Shown: positions 2,447 to 8,710 of the stretch, in pieces
Layout of the letters: every line of letters starts with the position of its first letter
Position numbering within the stretch: position 1 is the first letter of the stretch
Assembly (NCBI GenBank): GCA_947628175.1
Contig: CANQZA010000002.1
Coordinates: 16,033-80,032, forward strand
Source of the DNA: an uncultured Clostridia bacterium
Lineage (GTDB): Bacteria > Bacillota > Clostridia > Oscillospirales > Acutalibacteraceae
Direction: 5' to 3'
DNA length: 64,000 bases
The notes under the pieces: generated by a model
What the model saw: only the letters and a program-made list of their open reading frames with translations
What the model was told of the DNA's origin: nothing
Database searches by the model: none
Translations under genes and position numbers: made by a program

Positions 2447-3208
2447 ATGAAATTATCAACAATACTGAAAAAGGGAAAAAACAAAATAAAAAGAATTTGT
2501 GAGAAAAAATACATAAATTTAAAATACGGAAGCGAAATAAAGAATTATAAAGATAAATTTAAAGGTAAGCGCTGCTTTATCATAGGAAACGGTCCGAGTC
2601 TTACTACTGATGATCTTGAAAAAATAAAGGATGAGTACACCTTTGCCTCTCATTTTATTTATAAAATTTTTGACAAAACCTCATGGCGCCCCACTTTTTA
2701 TTGTGTTGAAGATTATAATTTTTTAATACAGAATATTGATAAAGTTAAAACCCTCTCTCCGGAATATGAACACGGCTTCTTTTCAGGGAATATTTATAAA
2801 TCTCTCCCCGCTGATTTTCTTAAAAATAAAAAAAACAGCTTCTGGTATGTTGCCATGTTCAACTGGGAAAGCAATCCGTCTTTTTCATTTGATATAAGCG
2901 ATTATATTGCAGAAGGCATGACTGTTACATATTGCAATATACAGCTTGCCGTCTATATGGGTTTCAGCGAAATTTATCTTTTAGGAATAGACCATTTTTA
3001 TGAACCGCATAACAGCTACAGTGAATTTATAGGAAAAGACAGCACGGTATACAATGCGCCAAGGCTTGACAAATCCACTCTTGCTTACCGTAAGGCCGCA
3101 AAGGTTTGCAAAGAAAAGGGTATAAAAATTTATAACGCGACCAGAGGCGGCCACCTTGAAGAATTTGAAAGAATTGATTTTGACAGCATTGCGCAGAAAG
3201 GTGAATGA
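2447..3208 (+). CDS. DUF115 / MptE-like (PF01973-type) protein, copy 1
   Basis: CFIIGNGPSL...WRPTFYCVEDYN...YLLGIDHFY...KIYNATRGGHLEEFERIDFDS matches the capsule-associated DUF115 family. Confidence 0.82.
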   Translation: MKLSTILKKGKNKIKRICEKKYINLKYGSEIKNYKDKFKGKRCFIIGNGPSLTTDDLEKIKDEYTFASHFIYKIFDKTSWRPTFYCVEDYNFLIQNIDKVKTLSPEYEHGFFSGNIYKSLPADFLKNKKNSFWYVAMFNWESNPSFSFDISDYIAEGMTVTYCNIQLAVYMGFSEIYLLGIDHFYEPHNSYSEFIGKDSTVYNAPRLDKSTLAYRKAAKVCKEKGIKIYNATRGGHLEEFERIDFDSIAQKGE

Positions 3209-3209
3209 A

Positions 3210-4118
3210 GTGGAATTATCAACAATACTGAAAAAGGGAAAAAACAAAATAAAAAGAATTTGTGAGAAAAAATACATAAATTTAAAATACGGAAGCGAAA
3301 TAAAGAATTATAAAGATAAATTTAAAGGTAAGCGCTGCTTTATCATAGGAAACGGTCCGAGTCTTACTACTGATGACCTTGAAAAAATAAAGGATGAATC
3401 CTCTTTTGCGGCAAATTTAATTTATAAAAGTTTTGATAAAACCTCATGGCGTCCCACTTTTTATTGCGTTGAAGATTATAATGTATTGGAAAAAAACATT
3501 GACGAAATAAAAAAACTCTCGCCGGAATATGAACACGGCTTCTTTTCAGGGAATATTTATAAATCTCTCCCGTCCGATTTTCTTAAAAATAAAAAAAACA
3601 GCTTCTGGTATGTCGCCATGTTCAACTGGGAAAGCAATCCGTCTTTTTCATTTGATATAAGCGATTATATTGCGGAAGGCATGACTGTTACATATTGCAA
3701 TATACAGCTTGCCGTCTATATGGGTTTCAGCGAAATTTATCTTTTGGGAATAGACCATTTTTATGAACCGCTCAACAGCTACAGTGAAATAATCGGAGCT
3801 GCCAATGAAGTTTACAATGTTCCGCGGCTTGACAAATCCACTCTTGCTTACCGTAAGGCCGCAAAGGTTTGCAAAGAAAAGGGTATAAAAATTTATAACG
3901 CGACCAGAGGCGGCCACCTTGAAGAATTCGAGAGAGTTGATTTTGACTCCTTATTCGCTGATAATAGTACACCCCCCCCCCGCAGAAATAATTTAATTGC
4001 GGCATATTGCATACATGCCTGTTTTTACAAAAACCGCAGCACAAAAATGATGGCTCTGTCTGCGGCGGTAAACTTCAAAAATTTAATGATGCTGATTTCC
4101 GTTCATTGTTTGATTTGA
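3210..4118 (+). CDS. DUF115 / MptE-like protein, copy 2, ending in a poly-C-encoded PPP and a ~45-aa non-DUF115 tail
   Basis: GTG start at 3210 (VELSTILKKG), almost identical to copy 1 over the N-terminal ~60 aa; the frame runs through C10 at 3972-3981 and ends at TGA 4116-4118. Confidence 0.78.
   Translation: MELSTILKKGKNKIKRICEKKYINLKYGSEIKNYKDKFKGKRCFIIGNGPSLTTDDLEKIKDESSFAANLIYKSFDKTSWRPTFYCVEDYNVLEKNIDEIKKLSPEYEHGFFSGNIYKSLPSDFLKNKKNSFWYVAMFNWESNPSFSFDISDYIAEGMTVTYCNIQLAVYMGFSEIYLLGIDHFYEPLNSYSEIIGAANEVYNVPRLDKSTLAYRKAAKVCKEKGIKIYNATRGGHLEEFERVDFDSLFADNSTPPPRRNNLIAAYCIHACFYKNRSTKMMALSAAVNFKNLMMLISVHCLI
3972..3981 (+). repeat. Homopolymeric C10 tract at the 3' end of DUF115 copy 2
   Basis: agtaca-CCCCCCCCCC-gcagaaataatt read directly from the sequence. 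Confidence 0.97.
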
Positions 4119-4200
4119 ATAGACATTCAGATGACAAACACGAAACAAAAGCACCTAACAATGAAAGGAAATTCATGATGAAAATTATTGGAGTAATTCC
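3972..4200 (+). repeat. Direct repeat unit A: poly-C + linker + RBS + start of kdsB-like gene
   Basis: gcagaaataatttaattgcggcatattgcatac...gaaaggaaattcatgatgaaaattattggagtaattcc recurs at 4965-5183 with about 11 substitutions. Confidence 0.93.
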
Positions 4201-6693: not shown

Positions 6694-6722
6694 CAGTTGC
6701 ATAATCGGAGGAATCTTATAAT

Positions 6723-7802
6723 ATGGTTATTACATTTTTTATTCTCTTTCTGCTATGTTTGTATAACATTAAGTTTTCATTAGCAGACAACATCAGATTA
6801 ACAGATAACAATATAGTTACAACCCCCCCCCGCACGAATTATCTATCAATTGACAGGACGAATTCCATTAAAGGTATTTTTATTTTATTAATCTTTATAA
6901 GCCATGCCCAAAAATATATAGAGCTTAATGATTCAATTATGAACACACTTTATTACAAATTAAACGGATTTGTGATAGGTCAGTCTGTAGTGGCTATGTT
7001 TTTATTCTACTCCGGATACGGTGTGATGTTTTCCATTTGCAAAAAGGGTGACGCTTATATAAAATCAATTCCGTCCAAAAGAGTGCTTAAAGTCCTTTTA
7101 CATTTTGACATCGCAATACTTTTGTACTTGATATTGCAGTTGGTTTTGGGAAAGCATTTTTCAATATCAAAAATTTTACTTTCCTTTACTGCATGGGAAA
7201 CGATAGGCAACAGCAACTGGTATATTTTTTCAATCCTGATTCTTTATTTAATTACATATTTTTCTTTCATGCTTTTCAAAAACAACAAAACCATCGCTTT
7301 ATCCATGACTTTTGTTCTGACCGTTGTGATGATACTGGTTTTGCGTCAATTCAAGGAAATATGGTGGTACGATACGGTCATCATTTATCCTATCGGAATG
7401 ACATATTATTTTGTTCGTGATAAGCTCGAACGGCTGTTTGACAAAAAACCGTGGGTTTATTGGCTGAGTCTGTTTGCCTTGTGCGTTTTATTTATTTTAT
7501 CTCTGCTGAAAAAAAGCAATTTTTTTGTTCTTGAGCTTAATCATATTCTTTTTACCTTTATTGTTCTTTTTGTAACGATGAAAGTTCAGATTCACAACAA
7601 AATTCTTTGCTTTTTCGGCAAAAATCTTTTTTCCGTATATATACTTCAACAACTTCCCATGATTGCTTTTTCTTACCTGGGCGTTAATAATTATCCGGCG
7701 CTGTTTCTCCTTCTCTGCCTCGCGACTACTGTGCTGATAAGTTTTCCTTTTAATTTTATTTTATCAAGGCTTGACAAGGCAGTTTTTTATAATAAAAAAT
7801 GA
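6723..7802 (+). CDS. Acyltransferase 3 family membrane protein with in-frame poly-C tract near the N-terminus
   Basis: RTNSIKGIFILLIFISHAQKY...FLFYSGYGVMFS and multiple TM segments typical of acyltransferase 3; C9 lies at codons ~34-37. Confidence 0.82.
   Translation: MVITFFILFLLCLYNIKFSLADNIRLTDNNIVTTPPRTNYLSIDRTNSIKGIFILLIFISHAQKYIELNDSIMNTLYYKLNGFVIGQSVVAMFLFYSGYGVMFSICKKGDAYIKSIPSKRVLKVLLHFDIAILLYLILQLVLGKHFSISKILLSFTAWETIGNSNWYIFSILILYLITYFSFMLFKNNKTIALSMTFVLTVVMILVLRQFKEIWWYDTVIIYPIGMTYYFVRDKLERLFDKKPWVYWLSLFALCVLFILSLLKKSNFFVLELNHILFTFIVLFVTMKVQIHNKILCFFGKNLFSVYILQQLPMIAFSYLGVNNYPALFLLLCLATTVLISFPFNFILSRLDKAVFYNKK
6823..6831 (+). repeat. Homopolymeric C9 tract inside the acyltransferase CDS
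   Basis: atagttacaa-CCCCCCCCC-gcacgaattatc. Confidence 0.97.
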
Positions 7803-7849
7803 TCTTAATCCTTTAAAAACACAAGTATTGTTTGGAGAAAGGAAACCAT

Positions 7850-8710
7850 ATGCATGCTTATTTGATTTTGGCTCATAACGAGTTTGAATTGCTGACAAAT
7901 TTAATCAAAGCACTTGATGACGAGCGCAATGACCTTTTTATACATATTGATAAAAAGGTTAAAAATTTTGATTTTGCGCTTTTCAAATCCATTGCAAAAA
8001 AAAGCAAACTTCACTTTTCATCACGCACCGATGTCAAGTGGGGCGATATGAGCATGGTCAATGCTGAATACTGCCTGCTGCACGCGGCGCTTGACAGCGG
8101 CAAAAAGTATGATTTTGTTCATCTCGTTTCCGGCGTTGACATTCCTCTGCTCAATCAAAACGATATGCATAAATTCTTTGATTCAAATGCGGGAAAAGAA
8201 TTTATACACTTTGGTCATAAAGAGCTTTTGCCCGCTGAATTTCAGCGCGTTGCGTACTATCACTTTGCAACGGGCAGGCGCAACTACTTTAACCGCCTGA
8301 TAACAAAAACAGAATCTGTTTTAGGCAGGCTTCTGGGAATTAACCGTGTTAAAAACCTAACCGTTCAGCGCGGCTCTCAGTGGTTCAGCATTACAGGCGA
8401 TTTTGCAAATTATCTTCTCTCAAAAGAAGAATTTGTTAAAAGGCAGTTTAAACATACCTTTATTCCTGATGAATTTTTTGTTCAGACCGTTTTTATAAAT
8501 TCCCCGTTTAAGGACAATCTGTTTCACAGGGAGTTTGACAATTCTCATCTCGGCTGCCTCAGATATACCGACTGGCAGCGCGGATATCCGTACACCTTCA
8601 GAAACGAGGATTATGATGAAATTGTCAACTGCTCCTGCCTGTTCGCGAGAAAATTCTCAAACGCTGTTGACAGTGAAATAACAAAGAGACTGTATGAACG
8701 CATATTGTAA
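7850..8710 (+). CDS. Core-2/I-branching (beta-1,6-GlcNAc-transferase, Branch/GT14-like) glycosyltransferase
   Basis: MHAYLILAHNEFELLTNLIKALDDERNDLFIHIDKK...VHLVSGVDIPLLNQ...RGSQWFSITGDFANYLLS: PF02485 pattern. Confidence 0.85.
   Translation: MHAYLILAHNEFELLTNLIKALDDERNDLFIHIDKKVKNFDFALFKSIAKKSKLHFSSRTDVKWGDMSMVNAEYCLLHAALDSGKKYDFVHLVSGVDIPLLNQNDMHKFFDSNAGKEFIHFGHKELLPAEFQRVAYYHFATGRRNYFNRLITKTESVLGRLLGINRVKNLTVQRGSQWFSITGDFANYLLSKEEFVKRQFKHTFIPDEFFVQTVFINSPFKDNLFHREFDNSHLGCLRYTDWQRGYPYTFRNEDYDEIVNCSCLFARKFSNAVDSEITKRLYERIL

What the first reader, a model, noticed from the sequence alone, without database searches (positions are those of the whole stretch)
2447..8710. Candidate phase-variable ulosonic-acid surface-glycan module with three poly-C contingency tracts
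Seen: C10 (3972-3981), C9 (4956-4964) and C9 (6823-6831) lie within 2.9 kb of otherwise AT-rich DNA. Each sits inside an open reading frame of a surface-glycan gene (DUF115, KdsB-like, acyltransferase). I noticed no comparable mononucleotide G/C run elsewhere in the window. Established: mononucleotide G/C tracts drive slipped-strand phase variation in Campylobacter and Neisseria surface-glycan genes. In Campylobacter jejuni, the maf flagellin-glycosylation genes, which carry a DUF115/MAF-type domain, include members with poly-G tracts. Inference: this Gram-positive locus may be an analogous contingency module in which tract lengths combine to give different surface glycoforms.
Basis: partly seen in the sequence, partly recalled or inferred. 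Interest (0 to 1): 0.87.

Follow-up and report, generated by a model that had tools for sequence, protein, structure and literature searches.

The report
Slippery C-tracts switch sugar-gene translation
Three runs of 9-10 C's in a gut-type bacterium's sugar-coat operon look like real on/off contingency switches: one sits in the classical place inside an acyltransferase gene, but the other two sit at the ends of genes, where tract length appears to decide whether ribosomes run on and uncover the start of the next gene, an arrangement that recurs in several families of Clostridia.

Summary
The tracts are real and not chance. They are the only G/C runs of 7 or more in the window; the 2.24-Mb genome has seven runs of 7, one of 8 and twelve of 9-11, nearly all in surface-glycan genes. 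In this genome and a congener, four tract genes are split exactly at the tract, both halves matching adjacent parts of one Pfam model: the OFF state caught in assemblies.

Tract 3 is a conventional N-terminal ON/OFF switch of an acyltransferase. Tracts 1 and 2 are not: they lie beyond the core domains of the MptE-like (DUF115) and first KdsB-like genes, so slippage only changes a tail. I propose that they switch the NEXT gene. One frame reads a 44-aa tail whose last codons are the 5' arm of a hairpin hiding the ribosome-binding site of the following cytidylyltransferase; the other frames stop 10-15 nt after the tract.

A stricter form, with the tail ending on the next start codon, occurs at 17 junctions elsewhere in Clostridia (10 in the coupled frame, 7 not). 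Their ribosome-binding sites are unusually buried (median 9.2 versus 2.8 kcal/mol, p about 1e-5). No precedent was found in the literature held. Length variation within one strain could not be tested.

The parts
2447..3208 (+). MptE-like/DUF115 gene, copy 1 (no tract)
   Evidence: PF01973, E 4e-16; tandem paralogue of the next gene
3189..4118 (+). MptE-like/DUF115 gene, copy 2, with C10 after its core and a 44-aa tail
   Evidence: PF01973, E 3e-16, domain ends at residue 192 of 309; frames
3972..3981 (+). Tract 1, C10
3982..4118 (+). Tail 1: long frame of 44 aa, TGA at 4116-4118; the other two frames stop at +10 and +15
4086..4110 (+). 5' arm of predicted hairpin 1, in the last codons of the tail
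4157..4179 (+). 3' arm of hairpin 1: Shine-Dalgarno GAAAGGAAA and start codon of KdsB1
4175..5101 (+). KdsB-like cytidylyltransferase 1, with C9 and tail at its 3' end
   Evidence: PF02348, E 1e-47, domain ends at residue 211 of 308
4956..4964 (+). Tract 2, C9
4965..5101 (+). Tail 2: near-identical copy of tail 1, same long frame, TGA at 5099-5101
5069..5093 (+). 5' arm of predicted hairpin 2
5140..5162 (+). 3' arm of hairpin 2: Shine-Dalgarno and start codon of KdsB2
5158..5910 (+). KdsB-like cytidylyltransferase 2
   Evidence: PF02348, E 1e-46
5923..6693 (+). HpcH/HpaI-type aldolase
   Evidence: PF03328, E 2e-32
6723..7802 (+). Acyltransferase (Acyl_transf_3), interrupted near its N-terminus by tract 3
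   Evidence: PF01757, domain from residue 48
6823..6831 (+). Tract 3, C9, in frame as assembled; other frames stop 22 and 60 nt later
7832..8710 (+). Core-2/I-branching-type glycosyltransferase, last gene of the block
   Evidence: PF02485, E 2e-28

Best explanation
The tracts are slipped-strand contingency tracts of a surface-glycan operon in an uncultured member of the Clostridia, acting in two ways. Tract 3 is conventional: at C9 the acyltransferase reads through; a one-base change stops it early. Tracts 1 and 2 are end-of-gene tracts that switch the next gene by translational coupling. With the tract in the present frame, ribosomes finishing DUF115-2 (or KdsB1) read a 44-aa tail whose last codons are the 5' arm of a hairpin that buries the Shine-Dalgarno site and start codon of KdsB1 (or KdsB2). 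Ribosomes on the tail keep that arm melted and the next cytidylyltransferase is made. The tracts would combine into several glycoforms. Shown: tracts, frames, predicted structures, recurrence of the plan with both frames present in nature, and OFF-state tract genes elsewhere in this genome. Inferred: slippage in this strain, the size of the coupling effect, the glycan made.
For: Bimodal run lengths, 12 runs of 9-11, mostly in surface-glycan genes. Genes split exactly at tracts with contiguous Pfam halves: YfhO and an acyltransferase here, IspD-like and GT2 in congener G021. One long and two short frames after tracts 1 and 2, both assembled in the long one. Tail-SD duplex of -17.8 kcal/mol beats all of 500 shuffled tails for both copies; SD opening cost 7.4-7.6 kcal/mol, 2.1-2.4 if the 5' region is held open. 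Homologues of a CMP-sugar synthetase: five without tract end naturally; four with G8-G11 carry a tail that ends on the start codon of a second cytidylyltransferase. Seventeen such junctions in several families, 10 coupled and 7 not. SD burial in 13 of them 9.2 against 2.8 kcal/mol in 105 natural overlapping gene pairs, p about 1e-5.
Against: No reads or second strain, so length variation in this species is not shown. In the window the tail stops 57 nt before the KdsB start instead of on it, and that start has its own Shine-Dalgarno; about 9% of 79 ordinary starts are as buried. Leader 2 folds only moderately better than shuffles (z -1.7; leader 1 z -2.9). Two of 13 modules elsewhere show no burial. 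Structures are predictions. OFF genes could in single cases be homopolymer errors of assembly.
Confidence: 0.6

Rival explanations
1. Ordinary contingency tracts only: tract 3 switches the acyltransferase, while tracts 1 and 2 merely swap C-terminal tails of DUF115-2 and KdsB1, altering activity, stability or localisation, or are neutral passengers at tolerant gene ends.
For: The tracts lie in the tails of their own genes; seven nucleotide differences within the 44-codon tail frame look mostly synonymous by eye (from the alignment), as if the peptide mattered; KdsB1 and KdsB2 have their own Shine-Dalgarno sites.
Against: The same end-of-gene placement recurs before cytidylyltransferase, MptE-like and epimerase genes in several families, with the tail stop on the next start codon and an SD hairpin, which tail-swapping does not predict.
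Confidence: 0.25
2. Fixed-ratio recoding: RNA polymerase or ribosome slips on the run so that both frames are made at once, without heritable variation.
For: Long homopolymers can cause transcriptional or ribosomal slippage (PMC3711429, mainly for A/T runs).
Against: Runs are G/C, of many lengths (8-14), in both coding orientations and in OFF frames in several genes; conserved recoding sites keep a fixed length and frame.
Confidence: 0.08
3. Assembly or sequencing artefact: the runs or their lengths are errors of metagenome assembly.
For: The genome is a fragmented assembly and some C runs in other genomes of the set look artefactual (for example 24 C's beside adapter-like sequence in G011).
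Against: The runs are inside long contigs, concentrate in glycan genes, have a bimodal length distribution and recur at the same kind of junction in many genomes, while most congeners have none.
Confidence: 0.05

Closest known systems
Bifidobacterium breve sortase-pilus G-tracts (bbr_0113, bbr_1889; PMC9187656)
   Same: G-tract slippage in a Gram-positive gut commensal; the tract lies in the first gene of an operon and its frame affects downstream genes.
   Different: There slippage fuses two halves of one pilus gene, and downstream effects are put down to transcriptional polarity; no end-of-gene tract, overlapping start or SD hairpin is described.
Campylobacter, Neisseria and Helicobacter homopolymer contingency loci (for example PMC6321876, PMC5953494)
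   Same: Multiple G/C tracts of 8-12 in surface-glycan genes; tract 3 works in just this way.
   Different: Those switch the gene holding the tract (or its promoter); tracts 1 and 2 appear to switch the following gene. Details of those loci are from general knowledge and abstracts, not tested here.
Translational coupling by overlapping stop/start with a buried Shine-Dalgarno site
   Same: Stop-start overlaps (ATGA, TAATG) and an SD hairpin opened by upstream ribosomes.
   Different: Here whether upstream ribosomes arrive depends on the length of a slippage-prone tract. PMC3711429 treats phase variation and coupling as separate causes of frame transitions.
RepG sRNA and the variable G-repeat leader of tlpB/hp0102 in Helicobacter pylori (PMC8295292)
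   Same: A variable G-run in an mRNA tunes translation of a surface-glycan gene (abstract only).
   Different: There an sRNA binds the run in a leader; here the run is translated and sets the frame.

Membership tests
Slipped-strand (homopolymer) phase-variable locus | Homopolymer run longer than chance in or near a gene of a surface structure | tested here: met
Slipped-strand (homopolymer) phase-variable locus | A one-base length change alters expression of a gene product (frame) | tested here: met
   Frames computed for tract 3 and for the tails of tracts 1 and 2; by sequence only, not by expression
Slipped-strand (homopolymer) phase-variable locus | Out-of-frame (OFF) alleles found with the rest of the gene intact | tested here: met
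   Four genes with contiguous Pfam halves in this genome and G021; not for the three window tracts themselves, which are all in the long or ON frame
Slipped-strand (homopolymer) phase-variable locus | Tract length varies reversibly within a clonal population | not testable with these tools
   No reads or second strain held; orthologous tracts of two congeners differ (G10 and G9)
Translational coupling (stop/start overlap) | Upstream stop within a few nt of downstream start | tested here: not met
   In the window the tail stop is 57 nt upstream of the KdsB start. Met in 17 junctions elsewhere
Translational coupling (SD unmasking) | Downstream SD buried by pairing with sequence translated as part of the upstream frame | tested here: met
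   Predicted structures, (window; 13 other modules, 11 buried)
Maf flagellin glycosyltransferase | MptE-like/DUF115 domain in the Maf arrangement and flagellar context | not tested
   Only the PF01973 domain was shown; no comparison with Maf proteins was made
KDO / nonulosonic acid pathway | CMP-sugar synthetase plus a synthase for the ulosonic acid | tested here: inconclusive
   Two CTP_transf_3 proteins and an HpcH/HpaI aldolase; substrate unknown, no search for a NeuB- or KdsA-type synthase was made

The most novel reading that the evidence does not exclude
A family of transferable, phase-variable translational-coupling cassettes (G/C tract, short tail, SD hairpin, overlapping start) exists in Clostridia and is copied between unrelated gene pairs of surface-glycan operons. 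Related tails ending AGKAVAA followed by ATGA occur after different genes in different families (L058, L060, G255, twice in G276), and the window holds two copies of its own leader type.
Probability: 0.45. Interest if true: 0.85.

Novelty: new variant of a known kind. Interest (0 to 1): 0.7.

Why it matters
Phase variation by G/C-tract slippage is best known from Gram-negative mucosal bacteria; here it appears as a systematic feature of some lineages of Clostridia, with up to about 20 exact C9 runs per genome. If the coupling reading is right, the unit switched is not the gene holding the tract but the next one, so surveys that score only the host gene would assign the wrong phenotype or dismiss end-of-gene tracts as harmless. 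It offers a directly testable account of how commensal surface glycans may vary against phages and host antibodies.

Tried and rejected
(1) Fusion of DUF115 with KdsB1, or KdsB1 with KdsB2, by slippage: rejected, the KdsB frame has a stop just after the tract. (2) A known RNA element in the leader: only sub-threshold, meaningless Rfam matches. (3) A directional flank A-C9-G as a universal rule: rejected. It is strong in this genus and in family f21 and absent from runs of 4-7, but class-wide the flanks are lineage-specific and in some lineages reflect paralogues or promoters; cause open. (4) Strain variants from the protein database: only a mosaic DUF115 copy (P0121) and a 66% identical acyltransferase starting at the internal Met (P0003), suggestive at best. 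(5) Other phyla as controls: a centre must be a genome handle. (7) A class-wide pattern for the module (G8, 35-65 nt, GSNGCATGA): 6 matches against 0 for the reversed pattern, but one of them (G062) is not a module and two are the same place. (8) A multiple alignment of acyltransferase orthologues failed on coordinates and was not repeated.

Full report
WHAT IS THERE. The window holds exactly three G/C runs of 7 or more: C10 at 3972-3981, C9 at 4956-4964, C9 at 6823-6831. They lie in a co-directional block of two tandem MptE-like/DUF115 genes, two KdsB-like cytidylyltransferases, an HpcH/HpaI aldolase, an acyltransferase and a core-2/I-branching-type glycosyltransferase, downstream of glycosyltransferases, two LicD genes, a CDP-glycerol transferase and a flippase-like gene. 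The genome is a 2.24-Mb assembly in 121 contigs, 98% complete; the nearest named records are uncultured Clostridia.

MORE THAN CHANCE. Exact run lengths in the whole genome are 7:7, 8:1, 9:8, 10:3, 11:1; the rise after 8 is not what base composition gives. Two thirds of 60 congeners have no C9 run. The twelve tracts of 9-11 sit in two LicD genes, DUF115, KdsB, four Acyl_transf_3 genes, an MBOAT, a YfhO, a hexapeptide transferase and a DNA methylase, in both coding orientations.

OFF STATES. In this genome a YfhO gene and an acyltransferase, and in congener G021 an IspD-like and a GT2 gene, are split exactly at the tract, and each pair of halves matches neighbouring parts of one Pfam model. A further acyltransferase here (G11, N-terminal) lacks an in-frame start across its tract. 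This is how contingency genes look when caught OFF, although homopolymer error of assembly cannot be excluded gene by gene.

TRACT 3 sits between the start and the conserved domain of the acyltransferase. C9 is in frame; the other frames stop 22 and 60 nt after the tract. Homologous proteins keep the N-terminus but, by inspection, lack the TTPPR stretch.

TRACTS 1 AND 2 do not fit the ordinary model. Both lie after the conserved core of their gene. The sequence from tract to next start is about 95% identical between the two. One frame reads 44 aa to a stop at +137; the others stop at +10 and +15; the next ATG is at about +194. Both tracts are assembled in the long frame.

THE PROPOSED RELAY. 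The last codons of the tail (4086-4110; 5069-5093) pair with the Shine-Dalgarno site and start codon of the next KdsB gene (4157-4179; 5140-5162), and the tail-SD duplex (-17.8 kcal/mol) beats all of 500 shuffled tails for each copy. Opening the SD costs 7.4-7.6 kcal/mol, and 2.1-2.4 when the 5' region is held open. About 9% of 79 ordinary starts are as buried, so the window by itself is suggestive and not proof. Counted by eye, none of the roughly eleven differences between the two leaders falls in the arms.

RECURRENCE. Nine loci with a homologous CMP-sugar synthetase were compared: five end naturally without a tract; four have G8-G11 directly after the natural end, and the tail then stops on the start codon of a second cytidylyltransferase (TAATG, ATGA, ATGA, TGAGATG). 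In DUF115 loci fetched without regard to tracts, nine junctions of this kind were found (one, L058, is the same junction as in G056), with MptE-like, KdsB-like, epimerase and sugar-transferase genes on either side. HpaI-cytidylyltransferase junctions occur in G047, G255 and G276, and an epimerase-epimerase junction in G276. Of 17 distinct junctions the assembled frame is the coupled one in 10 and not in 7, so both phases occur in nature. Of 12 end-of-gene tracts in the loci fetched without regard to tracts, 9 fit, against 39% expected when any of three frames may do so (p = 0.013). SD opening cost is 9.2 kcal/mol (median) in 13 modules against 2.8 in 105 natural overlapping pairs (p about 1e-5, G+C-matched); two modules (L064, L068:8389) show no burial. 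The orthologous HpaI tract of two congeners is G10 in one and G9 in the other, with changed flanks.

CASSETTE. Related tails ending AGKAVAA-ATGA after different genes in different families, and the duplicated leader in the window, suggest that the switch is copied between gene pairs. This is the most novel reading and is not proven.

PRIOR ART. In the library held, the nearest Gram-positive case is the Bifidobacterium breve pilus G-tract (PMC9187656), where slippage joins two half-genes and downstream genes are thought to suffer polarity. PMC3711429 treats phase variation and translational coupling as separate causes of frame transitions. Searches that join the two ideas found no described tract-dependent coupling switch; subscription journals are mostly not covered, so this is weak evidence of novelty.

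LIMITS. No reads, no second strain, one genome per species. RNA structures are predictions. The sugar made is unknown. Modules are partly related to each other, so not all of the 17 are independent. In the window the tail stops 57 nt short of the next start, so strict stop/start overlap, a defining feature of the modules elsewhere, is not met there: the window works like them, if it does, through the hairpin alone.

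Noticed in passing
All long C-tracts of this genome and congener G021; class-wide: Long C-tracts of this genus are flanked by A on the 5' side and G on the 3' side of the C strand (10 of 12 here, all 11 in G021) whichever strand codes, while runs of 4-7 show no such bias; other lineages have other fixed flanks. Unexplained.
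   Followed up: partly
L021:12005-12513 (contig C2, upstream of the window): After the second LicD gene's tract lies a patchwork of scraps in other frames: a piece resembling the window's acyltransferase, then pieces resembling the neighbouring CDP-glycerol transferase. Looks like recombination debris.
   Followed up: no
window 2447-4118; protein P0121: A database protein 96% identical to DUF115 copy 2 has the N-terminus of copy 2 and the C-terminus of copy 1, as expected if another strain has three or more tandem copies.
   Followed up: partly
window 4007-4175: In the KdsB frame the leader reads GGKLQKFNDADFRSLFDLN, resembling the DUF115 C-terminus GGHLEEFERVDFDSLF: the leader may come from a decayed DUF115 copy.
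   Followed up: no
L293, L296 (G420), L324 (G324): C9 runs lie between TTGACA- and TATAAT-like hexamers on the opposite strand, that is, in possible promoter spacers; a second type of phase-variable site in other Clostridia.
   Followed up: no
L202 (G167), L230 (G300): G9 tracts appear to lie inside type I restriction specificity-type genes (judged from sequence only), a classical class of phase-variable gene.
   Followed up: no
L301-L311 (G349, G366; genomes of about 1.1-1.2 Mb): Several G9 tracts shortly after lipoprotein-like signal sequences of large secreted proteins, with flanks T..G, some out of frame.
   Followed up: no
L022:6790-7467 (contig C6:49970): A DNA methylase gene next to other mobile-element-like genes carries a G9 inside the methylase domain region: possibly a phase-variable methylase.
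   Followed up: no
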